NCBI RefSeq assembly: GCF_002356115.1
Contig: NZ_AP014836.1
Location: 1,737,091-1,801,090 of the forward strand
Reading direction: 5' to 3'
Length of the DNA stretch: 64,000 nucleotides
Source of the DNA: Candidatus Nitrosoglobus terrae
Lineage (GTDB): Bacteria > Pseudomonadota > Gammaproteobacteria > Nitrosococcales > Nitrosococcaceae
Shown here: in pieces, positions 3 through 39,004 of the stretch
Numbering within the stretch: position 1 is the first letter of the stretch
Layout: each line of letters opens with the position of its first letter
Translations under genes and position numbers: made by a program
The notes under the pieces: model-generated
What the model saw: only the letters and a program-made list of their open reading frames with translations
Database searches by the model: none
What the model was told of the DNA's origin: nothing

Positions 3-122
3 ATTAAATCTTCGCTTAAAACCCCTGTAATATTTGATGGCCGCAATCTCTATGATCCCATTTTAATGGCTAACCAAGGTATCATTCATTACTCTATTGG
101 CCGATTACCCGCAGTTAAATAG
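3..122 (+). CDS. UDP-glucose 6-dehydrogenase, C-terminal end (partial)
   Basis: Only the last 39 codons lie in the window, and the gene runs off the left edge. The frame beginning at base 3 contains the motif [11 protein letters not shown] followed by a short tail ending in LPAVK. That motif is typical of the C-terminal NAD-binding end of UDP-glucose/UDP-mannuronate dehydrogenases, which make UDP-glucuronate for surface polysaccharides. The stop at 120-122 lies 46 bases before gatB on the same strand. The UDP-glucose form is the likeliest member of the family, but the substrate cannot be fixed from this fragment. Confidence 0.75.
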
Positions 123-10017: not shown

Positions 10018-10868
10018 GTAATTTACTATATATGTGGCCTTAGTTTAAATAAATTAAAATTTTATCAAAATGTAACATCAACAACTTGACTGACAAAAAG
10101 TAAAATAAAACCAATAACCATTTATGAAACGCTTAACATCAATGATGACGATGTGAGGCCTAGTGAAATTATAAAATAAATTACTCCTGCTACATGAAAA
10201 ACCAATCCTAAAAAACATCTAAAAATGTTGTAAACCGCTATAAACCTAAATGTTATTATATACTAATATTTATTAGTTTGATTGCCGTAGGGCTATGAAC
10301 AACTATTTTTACAACAGGCAAAATATGTAACAATTCGTTGTTAACAGTGTTTATAATTTCGTTTATTATCCTTTTAGATCATTTCTAATTTTATTTCAGG
10401 TCTACCATTGGTATATGAGATCAGCTAGCAATAAAACTGACACTAAATCAATGCGCTACAACGTAGGCAAATAAACTTATAATTAAATTTCGAATGTAGG
10501 TCATAAAACTTAGATTTTCTTTCATCGGTATGATAACATAAATTTGATATAAAATCAAACAGACAAGACCCATTGCACCTAATAAAAGTAAATATAAACT
10601 AATAAACCCGATACCCATAGATAAAATGGATTGGATTGTAACGTTATCAGAACTTAGTATTTGCAGAGGCGTAGTATTTTCCTAAAACTAAAAAATTAAA
10701 GATTTGTCCATTTTTTACGGGTACCTACAACCGTGTTTTAACTGATCTTCCAATTCGGTATCAGAGTTAACGGTTTACGCTTCACGACCGGCTAACCTGT
10801 ATCGGTTAACCTGAATTCTCGCTTGCTACGTTTTTCTTGCTTCATCCTAGCCCGTATTCTCATTTAGC
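10018..10868. other. AT-rich gap between a GT9 gene and the tnpB remnant
   Basis: About 850 bases, clearly poorer in G+C than the flanks. It holds one plausible small membrane-protein ORF (10448-10618, minus), a small inverted repeat TAACAA-TTCG-TTGTTA at 10329-10344, and, next to tnpB, sequence that should correspond to the right end of the IS200/IS605-type element. I see no tRNA or other named element in it. Most of it looks like decayed or non-coding DNA left by rearrangement. Confidence 0.5.
10448..10618 (-). CDS. Possible small hydrophobic protein in the AT-rich gap
   Basis: A 56-codon ORF on the minus strand starts at an ATG (10618) and would give a small membrane protein: a hydrophobic N-terminal helix (ISLYLLLLGAMGLVCLILYQ), a polar linker with PMKENL, and a second hydrophobic segment (LIISLFAYVVA). 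The same frame stays open upstream for about 20 further codons, without a standard start until the ATG. AT-rich DNA yields hydrophobic ORFs by chance, and no ribosome site is evident. This may be a decayed gene or noise. Confidence 0.25.
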   Translation of the reverse strand: MGIGFISLYLLLLGAMGLVCLILYQIYVIIPMKENLSFMTYIRNLIISLFAYVVAH

Positions 10869-11840
10869 TTATACTAAACAAGCTTCCGGTTTGTCTGCCA
10901 GTCCACAAGCTTTAATTCCCGTGCGCCTCACGGTATCCTGTCTGCCCGACCTGTCTTGCCGACAGGCAGACAGGCAGGTTAGTGCTTTCTGTAGGATAAC
11001 TTTAGCTGCTGCACTATCTCTATCATGATGAGCATGACATTCCTTGCATTCCCATTCTCGGACATTTACCAGCAGTTTCTCACCTATTGAGCCACAATCA
11101 GGGCAAATGCCAATAGAGCGTTCAAACCGGCCTATGGTCATTAATTGTCTACCATACCATTGGGCTTTATAGGTCAGTTGACAGCGTAGCTCAGACCAAT
11201 CGCAGTCCCCAACCGCTCTCGCTAGCTTTCCGTTGGCCATGATGCCACGCACGTTTAAGTCCTCAATTGCTGTTACTTGGTTTTCGCGTACGATTGAAGT
11301 ACTTAAGTCGTGCAGAAAATTCCCTCGCTTGCTGGCTATTCTTTGGTGGATACGGGCTACGCCTATTCTGTTTTTGGCTCTGTTACTTGAGCCTTTTACT
11401 TTTCTTGATAAGTCCCGTTGTGCAGATTTAAGCTTACGTAGATACTTGAAATAAAACTTCCTTGGTTTAACTCTATTACCGTTGCTATCGGCTATGAAGG
11501 GGGTTAACCCAAAATCTAACCCTATCGCTTTATCGGTTTCAGGGGGATTAATGACATCTATGTAATCACATTGAAGTGAGATAAACCATTGTCCTGAAGA
11601 ATTACAAGATACCGTAGCACTATTTGGGGTTACGGGTATCTCTTGAAAGCTCCAGACTACTTTAACCTTGCCTAGTTTCGGTAAATCATTTGGTTTAAAG
11701 ATTTTAGCACCTCTACGTTTATCTAACGTATAACAGCAAGACTTTACTTGATGACGCTTTTTAAACCTTGGGTATTTGCTTTGTTTAGAGAAAAAGCGCT
11801 TAAGGGCTTCATCTTGTGTCCAGAGTACATTAATATACAT
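10869..11840 (-). CDS. tnpB: IS200/IS605-family TnpB (RNA-guided nuclease), N-terminally truncated
   Basis: The 323-residue product matches TnpB/OrfB from the middle of its N-terminal region onward: ALKRFFSKQSKYPRFKKRHQ, then the RuvC-like nuclease with all three acidic motifs (IGLDFGLTPFI, AIEDLNVRG, HHDRDSAAAK) and a zinc ribbon CPDCGS...CKECH. Typical TnpB proteins have roughly 60-80 more residues before the FF..K.YP.FK segment. Those are missing here, and the similarity stops where the 36-bp palindrome begins. The apparent ATG start lies inside that palindrome, so the present start is an accident of the truncation. No tnpA is present, so the element is a remnant and probably inactive. Confidence 0.85.
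   Translation of the reverse strand: MYINVLWTQDEALKRFFSKQSKYPRFKKRHQVKSCCYTLDKRRGAKIFKPNDLPKLGKVKVVWSFQEIPVTPNSATVSCNSSGQWFISLQCDYIDVINPPETDKAIGLDFGLTPFIADSNGNRVKPRKFYFKYLRKLKSAQRDLSRKVKGSSNRAKNRIGVARIHQRIASKRGNFLHDLSTSIVRENQVTAIEDLNVRGIMANGKLARAVGDCDWSELRCQLTYKAQWYGRQLMTIGRFERSIGICPDCGSIGEKLLVNVREWECKECHAHHDRDSAAAKVILQKALTCLSACRQDRSGRQDTVRRTGIKACGLADKPEACLV
10937..10974 (-). repeat. Nested inverted repeat at the 3' end of tnpB
   Basis: CCTGTCTGCC (10937-10946) pairs with GGCAGACAGG (10965-10974), and inside it CCTGTC (10950-10955) pairs with GACAGG (10961-10966). On the tnpB strand the right arm continues as an 8-base tandem repeat CTGCCTGT. It encodes part of the C-terminal tail. In IS200/IS605 elements the guide (omega) RNA overlaps the 3' end of tnpB, so a structured segment here is expected, but no guide boundary could be placed. 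Confidence 0.45.
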
Positions 11841-11861
11841 ACATGTATGTATATTAATGTA
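11826..11861. promoter_or_regulatory. Perfect 36-bp palindrome, probable TetR/AcrR-type operator
   Basis: The half-site TACATTAATATACATACA is followed with no spacer by its exact reverse complement. The core TACATACATGTATGTA contains the TACATACAT half-site found in AcrR operators of enterobacteria. It ends 10 bases before the ATG of a tetR-family gene, the usual place for an autoregulatory operator that also serves a divergent efflux operon. The divergent side now holds only the truncated tnpB. Confidence 0.8.
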
Positions 11862-11871
11862 AGGGTTAGTT

Positions 11872-12492
11872 ATGGTTCGGAGGACAAAAGAGGATGCTCA
11901 AGAAACACGGGAAAATATCCTAGAGGCTGCATCTATTATCTTTGTAAAAAAAGGAGTAGCTAAGGCAAGTCTTGAGGAGATAGCCCAAGAAGCTAGAGTC
12001 ACACGGGGAGCAATATACTGGCATTTCAAAAATAAGATGGATATTTTCCAAGCACTTCATGATCAGCTGTATAAGCCATTAACAGATATGATCTTACAAG
12101 ATTTGGAAAAAGGACACCCAAATCCATTAAAGCAGCTAGAAGAGCTATGTGTAAAATTACTTATAGATTTAGAGCATAATGCTCAGAAAAAACGTATTCT
12201 TACTATTTTTTTCCTAAAGTGCGACTACTCTGGCGAAATGGAAGAAATTCTAAGGAAGCAAAATGCAAGAAAAATAGAAAGCTTTAGCTTATTTACTCGT
12301 TATTTCGAGCGCGCTCAGCATAAAAAATATTTACCCCCTGAGACTAATCCAAAAATTCTTACCTTATCCATCTCTTGTTATTTGACTGGCATTGCTCAAG
12401 AGTATATCCGTAATCGAGGCTATTTTAGCTTGGAAGAACAAGGGCCTGCTATGATGCGGCAGTTTTTTGCAGGGTTTAGTAAAAAAGTATAA
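11872..12492 (+). CDS. TetR-family repressor, AcrR/TtgR-like
   Basis: A 206-residue TetR regulator. Residues 10-60 form the DNA-binding domain (ETRENILEAASIIFVKKGVAKASLEEIAQEARVTRGAIYWHFKNK), nearly identical in style to AcrR, TtgR and MtrR, which repress RND multidrug pumps and bind varied ligands. The C-terminal domain (FFLKCDYSGEMEEILRKQ, YISGL-like LTGIAQEYIRNRG) matches the AcrR type. A perfect 36-bp palindrome sits just upstream. No efflux pump gene adjoins it now, so its target was either lost when tnpB landed there or lies elsewhere. Autoregulation is likely from the operator position. Confidence 0.9.
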   Translation: MVRRTKEDAQETRENILEAASIIFVKKGVAKASLEEIAQEARVTRGAIYWHFKNKMDIFQALHDQLYKPLTDMILQDLEKGHPNPLKQLEELCVKLLIDLEHNAQKKRILTIFFLKCDYSGEMEEILRKQNARKIESFSLFTRYFERAQHKKYLPPETNPKILTLSISCYLTGIAQEYIRNRGYFSLEEQGPAMMRQFFAGFSKKV

Positions 12493-12570: not shown

Positions 12571-13284
12571 CTACTTTCTTTCCTCGCCAGTGGGTGAGAG
12601 GTGGAATTCTTTAACCGACTTCAGCCGACCCAAAACCTCCGCTAATCTACTGATATTGGAGGCACGATGGGTACAAATAACCATACTGTATTCGAAGAAT
12701 TCCTTATCACCATTTAGCCAATACTTAAGATTTGACATAGTAAAACCATACTCAGCAATAAGGTGTCGTACCTCAGCTTCTGGCATCCTATCGCTATAAG
12801 CAAAGCGTACGATCAAATAAGCATAGGACTGCGCTGGAATTTTAGTCTCAATCCATTTAAAAACAGACAATATCCCCAGAGTAAGCAAAGCTGCTAACGC
12901 AGCTGGAAAATAAAAACCAATACCAATCAGGATACCAATAGCGGCAGTTGCTAAGATAGAAGCGGCGGTAGTAAGACCCCGAACTGACCCTCCATCCTGC
13001 ATGATAACACCAGCGCCAAGGAAACCAATACCCGTCATGATTCCTTGTGCCATCCTAGTGGGATCCATACTGGTATGTCCTAGGGCGGCACTTGAAAGCC
13101 AATGGGTTTCGTATACTGTAATGAGCATCAGTAGGCAGGTAGAAAGACACACTAACGCACAAGTACGAAACCCAGCGGGCCGACTATGATAGCTTCGCTC
13201 AAGGCCAATGGCAGCCCCTACCAAAAGCGCTGCCAATAACCGTAAAATAAGCTCATTATAGATCCCATTGAAAACATTCTGCAT
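12571..13284 (-). CDS. MgtC/SapB-family inner-membrane protein
   Basis: A 237-residue protein with the MgtC/SapB fold: an N-terminal membrane part of about five helices (LLAALLVGAAIGLERSYHSRPAGFRTCALVCLST, GIGFLGAGVIMQDGGSVRGLTTAASILATAAIGILIGIG) and a soluble ACT-like C-terminal domain of about 90 residues. The GLERSYHSRPAGFRT stretch is the family signature. Some members inhibit the F1Fo ATPase or support growth in low magnesium; many environmental homologues are uncharacterised. It converges with the tetR gene and is divergent from the metal-sensor cluster. Confidence 0.88.
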   Translation of the reverse strand: MQNVFNGIYNELILRLLAALLVGAAIGLERSYHSRPAGFRTCALVCLSTCLLMLITVYETHWLSSAALGHTSMDPTRMAQGIMTGIGFLGAGVIMQDGGSVRGLTTAASILATAAIGILIGIGFYFPAALAALLTLGILSVFKWIETKIPAQSYAYLIVRFAYSDRMPEAEVRHLIAEYGFTMSNLKYWLNGDKEFFEYSMVICTHRASNISRLAEVLGRLKSVKEFHLSPTGEERK

Positions 13285-15460: not shown

Positions 15461-16621
15461 TTACCCTTCCCTTCTGGTCTGCCGTCGGCCTATGATACCT
15501 AACAACCCTAGCCCCAAGCTTAAAAGAGCCAGACTTGAGGGTAGAGGTACACTCGCTGTAGTAGGAATAGCTAGGAAGGGAACATCAACACTACCATTAT
15601 TAGTTGCCCCTGTTCCCAAAATCCAGCCTTGATTATTAATACCAGTTGCTTGATTTAAGCTGCTAAACATCGTCTTGCTCGCAGGCGTGAGTAAATTATA
15701 CAGATTATACTGAGCTCCCTGATCGTCGAGAAAAGCGCCACCACTACTGCTCTGGCCTACTATTTCGCCACTATCATTGATACCATAACCCGTGCCACCT
15801 AAAGAAATAATCTGACCAGTACTAGGATTATAAAGCCCAAAACTCCCCACTGCCTGACCGCTATTATTAATAGCATAGCCCGTACCCCCTAGGGAGGTAA
15901 TTTTGCCGGTGGTGGGATTATAAAAGCCAAAACTCCCCGTAGCTTGACCGTTATCGTTAACAGCGTACCCTGTCCCTGCCCCTAAATTAATCCCTTTATC
16001 CGTATTAAAATTAAAAATAACCGCATCATTCCCAATCTGACCAATGGCTTGATTATTGTTACTGATACCATAAAATTCGCCGCCTGTTACTGTTATCTGA
16101 TCTGGTGATACCGGCTGGCCGGTGCTTGGATCTGTTACAAAGCCATCATTGTTTATAGCATAGGTTTGATATATACCATTATTGTCTAATCCGACTGCTA
16201 ACCCCGTACCCCCACTAAAGACGGCCGCAGAACCCCCAAATGAGTTCCCTGGGGAGGTGAAGGCGCTACCCGCTACCTGACCGTTGTTATTCAAATCATT
16301 ACCAAAATAATCTCCATCGCCTGGGGATACTGGAGAGCTAGTAAGGAAGTCACCGTTGTTAAGATTGGTATAAGAACTAACAAAAACATCAAAACCGGCC
16401 TGCTCTGCATTAATCAGTAGCTGGTTATTATTATTAATCCCACTAACACCAGTAAAACCAGGTACGCTTGGGCTAAGTTCAATCACCCTATAAGAAGGCA
16501 CGGCCCAAGCGCTGGAAGTAGTAATCACTCCGATTAGAATCAAACCAGTACAAAGCAGTGCCTTGAAATAAGGCCCTATCTTAGAGGCACCCTTTAAGCT
16601 TTCTAGATAAAGAAATTTCAT
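15461..16621 (-). CDS. HAF-repeat extracellular protein with PEP-CTERM-like sorting signal
   Basis: A 386-residue secreted protein. A long N-terminal region ends in a signal peptide (LLCTGLILIGVITTSSAWA). The body is built of HAF-type repeats, each with a (I/V)N(N/D)xGQ(A/V)xG core; two adjacent copies are close (GKITSLGGTGYAINNSGQ and GQIISLGGTGYGINDSGE) and give DNA repeats near 15.78-15.96 kb. The C-terminus is VPLPSSLALLSLGLGLLGIIG followed by RRQTRREG: a VPLP motif, one hydrophobic helix and an arginine cluster, which is the PEP-CTERM signal for exosortase processing. AGAGAGG precedes the ATG. The role is unknown; such proteins are usually surface- or biofilm-associated. No exosortase is in the window. 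Confidence 0.82.
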   Translation of the reverse strand: MKFLYLESLKGASKIGPYFKALLCTGLILIGVITTSSAWAVPSYRVIELSPSVPGFTGVSGINNNNQLLINAEQAGFDVFVSSYTNLNNGDFLTSSPVSPGDGDYFGNDLNNNGQVAGSAFTSPGNSFGGSAAVFSGGTGLAVGLDNNGIYQTYAINNDGFVTDPSTGQPVSPDQITVTGGEFYGISNNNQAIGQIGNDAVIFNFNTDKGINLGAGTGYAVNDNGQATGSFGFYNPTTGKITSLGGTGYAINNSGQAVGSFGLYNPSTGQIISLGGTGYGINDSGEIVGQSSSGGAFLDDQGAQYNLYNLLTPASKTMFSSLNQATGINNQGWILGTGATNNGSVDVPFLAIPTTASVPLPSSLALLSLGLGLLGIIGRRQTRREG

Positions 16622-27953: not shown

Positions 27954-28533
27954 ATCAGCGCGCACTTGGGGTATTGTAGCGCTTGTACTTATCGCCACTT
28001 TAACCGCTTGGGAATTATTGCGTGAAGAACCTACATCCCAGCCCAGCCTTAATATCGATTCAAACTCACGTACTATAGATTATTTTATGGAGCAGTTTAT
28101 CTCAACAGTGATAGATCAGAAAGGTTTACTTCTCTACCAATTATCAGGCGCTTATATGGCTCATTATCCCGATAACGACACTATAGATATCACTGCACCT
28201 CACATGTTGTTTTATCATCAGGTTGCAACTCCCAGCTGGGATGTTATTGCTGAGCGGGGGCTGACTAATAGCAATGGTGATGAAATTTATCTTCTGGGTA
28301 AAGTAATTATCCATCAACTTAAGGACAGCTCCCAAACCAGCCACATGAAGATATTAACTCGAGATGTACGAGTTGAGCCTGCTGCAAAATATGCTGAGAC
28401 TCAGCAGCCAGCTACTTTATTAGATAATTATGGAAGAACTGATGGTATAGGCGCCAGAATCTACTTTAAAGAGGAGCGTGTAGAAATTTTATCTCAAGTT
28501 AGAGGAGACTATGCCGCAGCAGATAAGCCTTAG
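27877..28533 (+). CDS. lptC: LPS export ABC transporter periplasmic protein LptC
   Basis: LptC sits in the inner membrane with one N-terminal helix (TWGIVALVLIATLTAWELL) and a beta-jellyroll periplasmic domain that passes LPS from LptB2FG to LptA. Family features are SRTIDYFMEQFISTVIDQKGLLLYQLSGAYMAHYPDND and [13 protein letters not shown] at the end. The start is unclear: the ATG at 27877 and a GTG at 27895 both lie inside kdsC, and no standard start lies just before the membrane helix. Long overlap with kdsC is therefore real or a rarer start is used. Identity rests on sequence and position before lptA. Confidence 0.9.
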   Translation: MLLVTSVNSLWKLKALSKRYWRVIIKSARTWGIVALVLIATLTAWELLREEPTSQPSLNIDSNSRTIDYFMEQFISTVIDQKGLLLYQLSGAYMAHYPDNDTIDITAPHMLFYHQVATPSWDVIAERGLTNSNGDEIYLLGKVIIHQLKDSSQTSHMKILTRDVRVEPAAKYAETQQPATLLDNYGRTDGIGARIYFKEERVEILSQVRGDYAAADKP

Positions 28534-29917
28534 ATTAATAATTTTTTGGCTTATTACCCAAAATCTAGCTTATGAAACTGCTTTAGCTTTCTCTAACGAT
28601 TCAGGGCAACCCATTCATATTGAAGCTGATCGAGGGGAGCTAGACAACCGCAAACAGGTTGCTATTTATTATGGTAACGTACACCTTACCCAAGACAATT
28701 TACGTATTGACTCCGATACGCTTACTATTTTTTATACTCCAGAGAAAAAAATCAAGAAAGCCATTGCGGAAGGTCAGCCTGCTTGGTATCGGCAGCAATC
28801 TAATGATGATAGTGAAGATATGCGAGCTAAAGCCCTCAAAATAGAATACCATGCCGATAATGCCACTATCTATCTCTTCCAAAAAGCCCATGTTTGGCAA
28901 GGTACAAACGAGTTTACTGGAGATCGGATTGTATATGATACAGAGCACCGTATTGTCAGAGGCCAAGGCTCTAAAGCTGGATCTGGGCGTGTACACGTTA
29001 CTATCCGCCCTGATGAAGTCGAACCCTCACCCAATAATTCTAACTCTACTCCTAAAAACTCAGATTCTACACCATCTCTAGCAGCTCCTCCTAAAAATCA
29101 GGTAGCCGATAATCAGCAGCTTAAAAGCGGAGAAGATCAAGGCCGTACCACAGATTGGCTGGCTTTATACGATAGCGCTAATATTAAGAGTAACCAAATA
29201 ATACTTCTCCAGCCACGTACTCAAGTCACCATTATTAATCGCAAAGATGAGTGGCTCCATATCACTACGCTCATAAAAGGTGAGCTGCTAGAAGGCTGGG
29301 TCGAAAAGAAGTTTATTCGGTTACCTGAATCAAATACAGATTCTATATCCTCCTCTCCCATCCCTATAGAATCTTCTAAAAATCAGGTAGTTAAAAATCA
29401 AAAATCTGAAAGCAGGCAGGCTCAAAATCGTACCACAGATTGGCTAAATTTATACGCTAGCACTGATATTAAAAGTAACAAGGTAGCCCGTCTTCAGCCC
29501 CAGACCCAAGTCACTATTATAGATCGCAAGGATGAATGGCTCTATATCACTGCTCTTGTAGAAGGCGAGCTACTGGAAGGTTGGGCTGAGAAAAAATTTA
29601 TTCAATTACCCGAAACAAGTATGAATTCTACGCACCCCTCTCCCATCCCTATAGAATCTTCTAAAAATCAGATAGTTAAAAATCAAAAAATTGAGATCGG
29701 ACAAGATCGGGGTCGCACTGCAGATTGGCTAAGTTTATACGCTAGCGCTAATATTAAAAGTAACAAGGTAGCCCTTCTTCAGCCCCATACCCAAATCACC
29801 ATTATAGATCGCAAAGGAGCCTGGATCTATCTCACTGCCCTCGTAGAAGGCGAGCTACTGGAAGGTTGGGCCGAAGGGAGATTTATTCAACTACTAGAGT
29901 CCAGTCAGCCGAAATAA
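28511..29917 (+). CDS. lptA: LPS transport protein LptA fused to three SH3-like domains
   Basis: The N-terminal half is LptA, the periplasmic bridge for LPS: signal peptide to about residue 26 (ending YETALA), then the OstA/LptA fold ([51 protein letters not shown]). After a Ser/Pro/Asn-rich linker at about 176-205 come three bacterial SH3-like modules, each with DWLxLY, SNxxxxLQPxTQ(V/I)TII and GELLEGW, the Trp falling at residues 216, 311 and 406. They repeat with a 95-residue period. Normal LptA is about 160-190 residues, so the 468-residue protein is unusual. AGAGGAG precedes the ATG, which overlaps lptC by 23 bases. The SH3 modules may bind peptidoglycan or a protein partner (inference). 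Confidence 0.9.
29132..29917 (+). repeat. Three in-frame tandem repeats (period 285 bp) inside lptA
   Basis: The conserved TGG codon of the DWLxLY motif falls at 29156, 29441 and 29726, so the period is exactly 285 bases. Copies 2 and 3 are closer to each other than to copy 1, and the linkers (ESSKNQ(V/I)VKNQ) are also repeated. This points to duplication of a module inside the gene. Confidence 0.9.
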
Positions 29918-37255: not shown

Positions 37256-39004
37256 ATGAGTAAAAAGATCAGTGGTTCAGAATATCCTTTAGCTAAAATT
37301 TTTAGTTCAGAGTTTGAATATGTCATACCTCCATACCAAAGACCCTACGCTTGGGAAATAGAGCAGATAACTACCTTATTTGATGATTTATATGATTTTT
37401 TTGAAGCAAATAAAGATGAGGACTATTTTCTAGGAAGTATTGTACTCATTAAAGAAGAAAGAGGAGCTCGTTCAGAAGTAGTTGATGGGCAGCAAAGATT
37501 AACGACGTTAACGATATTACTCGCTATTATCGCCTCCAAAATGGAGGAAACAAAAAGACAAAATATTTCTATATATATTTCAGAACCGGGCAATCCGTTT
37601 GAGAATTTAACACCTAAGTCAAGATTAACACTCAGATCACAAGATAAAGACTTTTTTAAGCATTATGTCCAAGAATTCAGGTTTGAAGGACTATTTAAGC
37701 TTGATGAAAAGCAGCTTAAAAATGAAGCCCAAATCAATATTAAACGTAATAGCCAAGCGTTACATTCCAAAATAATGGAGATTTTTGGCGAAGATATCAA
37801 AAAACTTAAAGACTTTACCAGCTTTCTTATACAACGATGCTTTATTATCGCTGTAACAGTATCTAACCAAAACACAGCCTTACGTATATTTTCCGTGATG
37901 AATAGCCGAGGCTTAGATCTACAGGAAACTGACATTATTAAAGCTGATATCATACGTTTATTAACAAGTGAATCTGAGCAAAATTATTACAGTAAAAAAT
38001 GGGAAGAGCTAGAAATTGAGATAGGTCGTGAGAGCTTCAAGGATTTATTTAGTCATATCAGAATGATATATGCAAAAGAAAAAGCAAGGCGTAATATTTT
38101 AGAAGAGTTTAGAAAGCATGTTCCTAATAAGAATACTGATCCTAATAAATTTATTGATGACATTTTAGATCCATATGCACAAGCTTATACTTTATACTAT
38201 TGTTAAAAATAGTGCCTATACGGCAGATACGGCAGAAACTCATGCTGTGGAGGTCAATAATTATCTAAAATGGTTAAATCGTATAGGAATAAAATCTAAT
38301 AATCCCCATTCCTATAGAGACTGGGTACCTGCTGCAATTCAGTTTACCGTTCAGAATAAAAATTACCCTGAATATATGGCTAGCTTTTTTAGGCAATTAG
38401 AAAGTTTAGCCGCTTATATGTACATTTGTAAATTGCAGATTAATGATCGTATAAAACGCTACAAGCCAATACTCTCGGCTTTAGAGAATCCTAACTCAAT
38501 TGATAAATCTATTGATAAGTCTATTCGAGCTGCTGAATTAACAGATTCAGAAAAACAAGAAATGCTGAAAATCCTAGATGGCGAAATCTATAACTTAACT
38601 CAAGGTCGTATGCCCTATATTATTTTGAGACTAGATTCTTTCGTTACTGATGGGGCAGCCACATACGATGGTAAACAACTAACGATTGAACATGTCCTTC
38701 CTCAAACAGTAGCAGATAATAGCGATTGGGCAAAAATATGGCCTAATTCTGAGGATCGTCAAACTTGGTGTCATCGTTTGGCAAACTTGGTTCCTTTAAG
38801 TAGAAAAAAGAATTCTGAGGCCCAGAATTACGATTTTGAAAAGAAAAAACAGCTTATTTCTCAGGAAAGAACGGGGTTTCATCCTATGCATTAACAACGC
38901 AAGTGCTTAAGGAATCTAGCTAGACTTTAGAGGTAGTTCAGCAAAAACAAGAATATTTACTTGAAATATTTAAAGACAATTGGGATCTAAAATACTCATG
39001 TTAA
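37256..39004 (+). pseudogene. GmrSD-type modification-dependent restriction gene (DUF262-DUF1524), broken by three mutations
   Basis: The frame from 37256 encodes the DUF262 domain, with the catalytic motifs YVIPPYQRPYAWE and VVDGQQRLTTLT, and stops at 38206. The C-terminal DUF1524 domain continues in another frame to 38894, with TIEHVLPQ and HRLANLVPLSRKKNSEAQNYDF, the HNH-like nuclease signature. The break coincides with TTATACT twice in tandem at 38185-38198; taking out one copy rejoins the frames as DPYAQAY-TIVKNSAY. A second frameshift lies near 38877-38879 (one T short), after which the tail reads SSYALTTQVLKESS. A TAG at 38921 then stands where TGG (Trp) is expected, followed by TLEVVQQKQEYLLEIFKDNW to a TAA at 39002. 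Intact, the enzyme would cut DNA with glucosylated hydroxymethylcytosine, as GmrSD does. It is now inactive. Confidence 0.88.
38185..38198 (+). repeat. 7-bp tandem duplication causing the first frameshift
   Basis: TTATACT occurs twice head to tail. The reading frames before and after differ by exactly the shift a 7-base insertion makes, and removing one copy restores an uninterrupted DUF262-DUF1524 junction. Confidence 0.9.

What the first reader, a model, noticed from the sequence alone, without database searches (positions are those of the whole stretch)
11821..11872. Perfect 36-bp palindromic operator with its divergent target replaced by a tnpB fragment
Seen: two 18-base half-sites with no spacer, ending 10 bases before a tetR start. 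TnpB similarity begins flush with the outer edge of the palindrome, and the apparent tnpB ATG lies inside it. Known: AcrR/TtgR/MtrR operators lie between the repressor and a divergent RND pump. Inference: an IS-linked deletion removed the pump genes and left an orphan repressor.
Basis: partly seen in the sequence, partly recalled or inferred. Interest (0 to 1): 0.6.

Follow-up and report, generated by a model that had tools for sequence, protein, structure and literature searches.

The report
Repressor operator beside a transposon scrap
A perfect 36-base mirror-image DNA site is very probably where an efflux-pump repressor shuts off its own gene; a broken piece of a jumping gene is joined to its edge, but the likely partner pump was not deleted there: it lies elsewhere in the genome, and a second copy of the site sits in front of an outer-membrane channel gene.

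Summary
The palindrome is real: 11826-11861, 2 x 18 bases, no spacer, unique in the 2.02-Mb genome, ending 10 bases before tetR. The repressor is AcrR/TtgR/NalD-like. Of 98 relatives, 65 have a divergent RND pump and 64 the operator core upstream, so the operator reading stands. "Pump deleted by an IS" is not supported. A likely partner pump persists beside hemH here and in the sister genus (67% identical), where tetR also lacks a divergent pump and no IS was seen. The tnpB junction is recent: copy 2 is identical over 1,023 bp. A 1-mismatch operator precedes tolC, at the same place in both genera. The genera decayed oppositely: here acrA and mlaE lack the operator but tetR is intact; in the sister, acrA, tolC and mlaE keep it but tetR has a stop codon. 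Unexplained: 18/18 symmetry (best of 64 relatives 15/18) ending within 0-9 bp of the tnpB junction, which hints at fold-back repair. Binding is untested.

The parts
11826..11861 (.). Perfect 36-bp palindrome; predicted autoregulatory operator of the TetR repressor (core ATATACATACATGTATGTATAT)
11872..12492 (+). tetR: 206-aa AcrR/TtgR/NalD-type repressor (TetR_N + TetR_C_2), the only TetR_C_2 protein found in the genome at E <= 0.001
10869..11840 (-). ORF holding a 5'-truncated IS200/IS605-type tnpB (about the first 80 residues missing; OrfB_IS605 and TNB domains kept); its apparent ATG lies inside the palindrome
10760..11825 (-). Insertion-sequence fragment: left boundary = end of the sequence shared with copy 2 (100% over 10760-11782); right boundary = palindrome edge (0-9 bp uncertain)
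11808..11813 (+). Place where, in the alignment, the sister tetR and the acrA, tolC and mlaE upstream regions have a TnGACA -35-like element; here it is tnpB sequence (ttcatc)
   Evidence: columns counted by eye
12571..13284 (-). mgtC-family gene, convergent with tetR; tetR-mgtC order shared with the sister genus

Best explanation
The palindrome is the operator through which an AcrR/TtgR-type TetR repressor represses its own gene. The same repressor acts in trans on tolC, about 1.39 Mb away in contig coordinates, through a second operator kept in both genera. The pump it probably once served (acrAB, next to hemH) is unlinked and in this genome no longer has an operator. Much later, a truncated tnpB (IS200/IS605 type) was joined to the outer edge of tetR's operator, displacing the -35 side of the tetR promoter. 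The junction did not remove the pump. Shown: sequences, positions, conservation and context. Inferred: binding, repression, which regulator uses the tolC site, and the order of events.
For: TetR family: TetR_N and TetR_C_2 domains; best solved relatives NalD, TtgR, AcrR. Operator core in the same register upstream of 64 of 98 relatives, 0 of 98 in the control; divergent RND pump parts in 65 of 98, and in 10 of the 11 nearest. Operator pattern at up to 3 mismatches in six family genomes: this genome 2 places (tetR palindrome with 2 mismatches, tolC with 1), sister genome 4 (tolC 0, acrA 0, mlaE operon 2, tetR 3), four genomes of a third genus 0; three of these four gave no match to the TetR and one only a weak one (E 9.8e-4); the backwards-read control gave 3 hits in the six genomes. 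The tolC site keeps TAACATACATTCAyGTATGTATA in both genera within poorly conserved flanks. Orthologous acrAB beside hemH in both genera. tnpB copy 2 is 100% identical over 1,023 bp, so the junction is young.
Against: No binding or expression data. acrA, the expected main target, has no operator in this genome (best score 18, best 8 of 20 mismatches, background level). In the sister genus the operators survive although this tetR has a stop codon, so another regulator may use the site. One relative only carries an orthologous tetR (75-76% identical), so ancestral gene order rests on two genomes. In the pump tree this acrAB joins the base of a group of 40 tetR-linked pumps on a long branch, but 9 other tetR-linked pumps fall in the other half with two Nitrosococcus-type pumps, and the TetR's nearest relatives are Micavibrio/Alteromonadales: partnership is consistent, not proved. 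No promoter passes the consensus scan at the palindrome.
Confidence: 0.72

Rival explanations
1. One reading: an IS-linked deletion removed a divergent pump operon at this locus and left an orphan repressor.
For: The common context of this repressor type is a divergent RND pump (65 of 98); a truncated IS lies where the pump would be.
Against: The sister genus has the same tetR-mgtC pair without a divergent pump and without a transposase-like ORF seen; an orthologous acrAB persists beside hemH in both genera and carries the operator in one; the IS junction is recent; a matching operator lies before tolC.
Confidence: 0.1
2. The perfect symmetry is selected: two repressor dimers bind the 36-bp site side by side, giving tighter autorepression, and the meeting of palindrome edge and tnpB junction is chance or deletion at the base of a cruciform.
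For: By eye the palindrome can be read as two overlapping half-site pairs 10 bp apart; some TetR-family repressors bind long sites as pairs of dimers (QacR, recalled, not from a call).
Against: None of 64 relatives with the core reaches it (9-15 of 18 paired), nor do the five other sites of the two genomes (9-12 of 18, best centre).
Confidence: 0.35
3. The left arm was made by fold-back or template-switch copying of the right arm at a broken end, which was then joined to tnpB; this gives a perfect palindrome that ends at the junction.
For: 18/18 symmetry as an outlier; palindrome edge within 0-9 bp of the junction; template switching is reported to turn imperfect palindromes into perfect or more perfect ones (PMC7202029, abstract and passages).
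Against: The ancestral left arm is unknown; the left arm matches other sites in 8-14 of 18 positions at four of five sites (1 of 18 at mlaE, whose register may be off), so descent with ordinary substitutions is not excluded.
Confidence: 0.25

Closest known systems
AcrR / TtgR / NalD / MtrR group of TetR repressors of RND pumps
   Same: TetR_N + TetR_C_2 domains; operator core with TACATACA/TGTATGTA half-sites upstream of the gene; the E. coli acrAB site 5'-TACATACATTTGTGAATGTATGTA (PMC10597343, passages) shares the half-sites; E. coli AcrR also has targets in trans (same passages)
   Different: No pump divergent from tetR; the operator is a perfect 36-bp palindrome; a second site lies before tolC; acrA has no site in this genome; scores below the curated AcrR and MtrR cut-offs
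IS200/IS605-type tnpB
   Same: OrfB_IS605 and TNB domains, homology over most of the protein
   Different: About the first 80 residues and the left end are missing; the second copy has an internal deletion and a broken frame
QacR operator of paired dimers (recalled)
   Same: Similar site length, TetR family
   Different: QacR's site has spaced arms (recalled); pairing of dimers is not shown here

Membership tests
AcrR/TtgR/NalD-type TetR repressor | TetR_N HTH plus TetR_C_2 (MAATS-type) C-terminal domain | tested here: met
   4.9e-15 and 1.9e-13, both over the cut-offs
AcrR/TtgR/NalD-type TetR repressor | Closest solved structures are members of the group | tested here: met
   NalD 5e-32, TtgR 4.1e-31, AcrR 2.7e-28
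AcrR/TtgR/NalD-type TetR repressor | TACATACA-type operator just upstream | tested here: met
AcrR/TtgR/NalD-type TetR repressor | Gene divergent from an RND pump operon (usual, not universal: 65 of 98 relatives) | tested here: not met
   tnpB fragment and DNA without a listed ORF instead
AcrR or MtrR proper (NCBIfam) | Curated score cut-off | tested here: not met
   140.3 of 271 (AcrR), 144.7 of 280 (MtrR)
AcrR/TtgR/NalD-type TetR repressor | Binds the operator, released by a ligand | not testable with these tools
   needs gel shift and ligand assays
IS200/IS605-type TnpB element | OrfB_IS605 and TNB domains | tested here: met
IS200/IS605-type TnpB element | Complete protein and both element ends | tested here: not met
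   profile position about 81 onward; the protein's start, kept at copy 2, is absent here

The most novel reading that the evidence does not exclude
Half of the operator was newly written by fold-back repair at a chromosome break: the broken end folded on the palindromic core, copied 18 bases of the right arm, and was sealed to a tnpB scrap. This would turn an ordinary imperfect repressor site into a perfect, possibly stronger, paired-dimer operator while removing the gene's own -35 element.
Probability: 0.22. Interest if true: 0.5.

Novelty: new variant of a known kind. Interest (0 to 1): 0.36.

Why it matters
It corrects a natural but probably wrong inference (a repressor beside an IS scrap means its target was deleted) by finding likely targets elsewhere. 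Two sister genera seem to have lost opposite halves of the same control circuit, the regulator in one and pump operators in the other. If binding is confirmed, that is a small natural experiment on how efflux regulons come apart in small-genome, probably acid-tolerant ammonia oxidisers.

Tried and rejected
A symmetric divergent promoter inside the palindrome: the hexamers that looked suitable are 14 bases apart (counted by eye) and the consensus scan finds none there; its one promoter-like and one terminator-like site lie at the end of tetR. IS end or mobile palindrome: rejected, one place in the genome and none at the other tnpB copy.

More sites in this genome: the exact pattern with spacing 0-12 gives only the palindrome and the 20-base pattern gives tetR and tolC. 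The 18-base half-site at 3 mismatches gives three further places, one overlapping the tolC site and two not followed up (C1:1015187, C1:1675292), against 2 hits of its control. Seven loci around RND pumps and tnpB copies (L064-L070) stayed at background (score 19-22; 3 shuffles of the window 21-22) except one TATA-rich place in L066 (score 25, 5 mismatches), not followed up. A full weighted scan of the genome was not made.

Exact tnpB boundary: MAFFT with three other TnpB reads did not align the short N-terminal stretch, so it stays at 0-9 bp.

Rows dropped: from the relative counts, the weaker hits (E 3.2e-21 or worse); five of them were looked at (L004-L008): none showed the operator, and L008 has a divergent pump. 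From the pump tree, 3 of 52 permease ORFs found by the script (L106, L147, L151). The first orientation of minus-strand loci was wrong and was redone. The 22-point operator threshold was my choice, and its control stretch is coding DNA. Of the 98 loci, 18 have only 1.5 kb flanks and some others end early, so a missing pump gene there is weak evidence of absence. Plasmid and viral searches gave only distant relatives (under 60% identity) and were not used further.

Full report
Observation. The palindrome is as described: arms 11826-11843 and 11844-11861, fully complementary, no spacer. It is the longest perfect palindrome in the window, half length 18 against 10 for the next and at most 10 in 20 mononucleotide shuffles, and it has one place in the genome at up to 3 mismatches. 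tetR starts at 11872. The tnpB ORF runs 11840-10869 on the minus strand, its ATG inside the palindrome. TnpB similarity starts at ORF residue 6-9 in the best comparisons, so it meets the palindrome edge within about 0-9 bases.

Where it is. The window lies in a 2.02-Mb genome of two contigs. Its family relatives are a 1.85-Mb genome of another genus (G002) and four genomes of 3.4-4.1 Mb of a third genus. From sizes and grouping I infer Candidatus Nitrosoglobus, Ca. Nitrosacidococcus and Nitrosococcus.

The repressor. TetR_N and TetR_C_2 domains; nearest solved proteins NalD, TtgR, AcrR; below the curated AcrR and MtrR cut-offs. It is the only TetR_C_2 protein found in the genome. Compared with the four aligned relatives it has R instead of G at residue 42, in the turn of the helix-turn-helix.

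The operator. Of these, 65 have a membrane-fusion protein divergent from tetR, 58 of them with an RND permease in reach; 1 has pump genes downstream, 12 have pump genes upstream in another arrangement, 20 have none found. Among the 11 nearest (43-49% identity), 10 have the divergent pump. A core close to TATACATwCATGwATGTATA lies within 250 bp upstream in 64 of 98, and in 0 of 98 in an equal control stretch inside tetR. The window palindrome has this core in the same register. That TetR-type repressors mostly sit divergent from a neighbour, and are likely to control it when it is under 200 bp away, is the finding of PMC3511530 (abstract and passages).

The pump was probably not deleted here. 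This genome has five RND permeases over the family cut-off. One, beside a membrane-fusion gene and hemH (L067), has an ortholog beside hemH in the sister genus (RND 67%, membrane-fusion protein 60%, HemH 68% identical). In a tree of 53 permeases these two join the base of a group of 40 tetR-linked pumps; 9 other tetR-linked pumps fall in the other half with the two Nitrosococcus-type pumps included. Long branches and a midpoint root make this tentative. In the sister genus, tetR and mgtC are adjacent as in the window, tetR has an in-frame stop, a cupredoxin-like gene lies upstream, and no transposase-like or pump ORF is seen next to it (by eye in the ORF list); acrA lies about 8.5 kb away beyond hemH and carries the operator. 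So repressor and pump are apart in both genera, and nothing shows that the IS separated them. The tnpB fragment is recent: copy 2, elsewhere in the genome, is identical over 1,023 bp, lacks an internal stretch, keeps the protein start, and has no palindrome.

The distant target. A 20-base operator pattern (up to 3 mismatches) was sought in six family genomes. This genome has two places: the tetR palindrome and a 1-mismatch site just upstream of an outer-membrane efflux (TolC) gene in a pcm-tolC-waaA order (pcm and waaA named from recall; TolC). The site overlaps the first in-frame ATG of that ORF, and TolC similarity begins some 26-40 residues in, so the true start probably lies downstream. 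The sister genome has four places: tolC (exact), acrA (exact), an MlaE-type lipid transporter operon (2 mismatches) and the broken tetR (3). The four Nitrosococcus-type genomes have none; the backwards-read control gives 3 hits in the six genomes. Across the tolC upstream region of the two genera the operator block is kept with one change while the flanks are poorly kept. Here acrA and the mlaE ortholog (60% identical) have no site (best 8 of 20 mismatches, background). So each genus seems to have lost a different half of one circuit. Against this: the sister's sites are kept although its tetR is broken, which could mean a very recent break or another regulator using the same site.

Promoter geometry. 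Aligned, the acrA, tolC, sister tetR and mlaE sites share TnGACA, about 17 bases, then a -10-like stretch overlapping the operator (spacing counted by eye). At the window tetR the -35 position is tnpB sequence. The consensus scan finds no promoter at the palindrome, so how tetR is now transcribed is open.

The symmetry. In the 64 relatives with the core, 9-15 of 18 positions pair (best centre) and the longest uninterrupted half is 11; in the five other sites of the two genomes 9-12 pair; the window has 18 of 18. The symmetry ends where tnpB begins. Selection for a paired-dimer site and fold-back copying of the right arm both explain it; template switching that makes imperfect palindromes more perfect is documented (PMC7202029, abstract and passages). 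The left arm matches other sites in 8-14 of 18 positions at four of the five sites, so ordinary descent is not excluded.

Literature. Seven searches were made (listings seen) and passages of seven papers were read: PMC10597343, PMC3511530, PMC7202029, PMC10427799, PMC9769551, PMC8115276, PMC13170337. None of the listings or passages described this regulon. In the passages of PMC10597343 and PMC9769551, E. coli AcrR acts on acrAB, marA, soxS, puuA, the mdtJI/mdtUJI operon and flhDC; in PMC9769551 the words 'tolC promoter' occur once, in a reference on MarA, SoxS and Rob. The library is limited to open-licence papers, so this is no proof of absence.

Noticed in passing
G002 locus L032 6777-7424: The sister-genus tetR has one in-frame TAG at codon 18 and is otherwise open, while operator-like sites remain at acrA, tolC and mlaE: perhaps a recently lost regulator with surviving sites.
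   Followed up: yes
L220 6518-10111 (sister genome): The operator also precedes a four-gene MlaE/ATPase/MlaD/ABC-auxiliary lipid transporter operon; the ortholog of its first gene in the window's genome lacks it.
   Followed up: partly
10018-10759: About 740 bp without a listed ORF of 60 aa or more between the heptosyltransferase gene and the IS end; hydrophobic reading-frame pieces (by eye) suggest a decayed membrane-protein gene.
   Followed up: no
L064 5007-6250 and 8021-8124: Second tnpB copy with an internal deletion and a broken frame, and a further 104-bp remnant (87%) of the same element 2 kb away; short remnants also at C1:782097 and C1:959107.
   Followed up: partly
28511-29917: ORF that reads as an LptA/OstA-like N-terminal part followed by three similar SH3-like repeats (by eye, no family search).
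   Followed up: no
15461-16621: ORF with internal glycine/asparagine-rich repeats and a PEP-CTERM-like C-terminal end (by eye).
   Followed up: no
37256-38894: Two overlapping ORFs that look like one DUF262-type gene broken by a frame shift (by eye).
   Followed up: no
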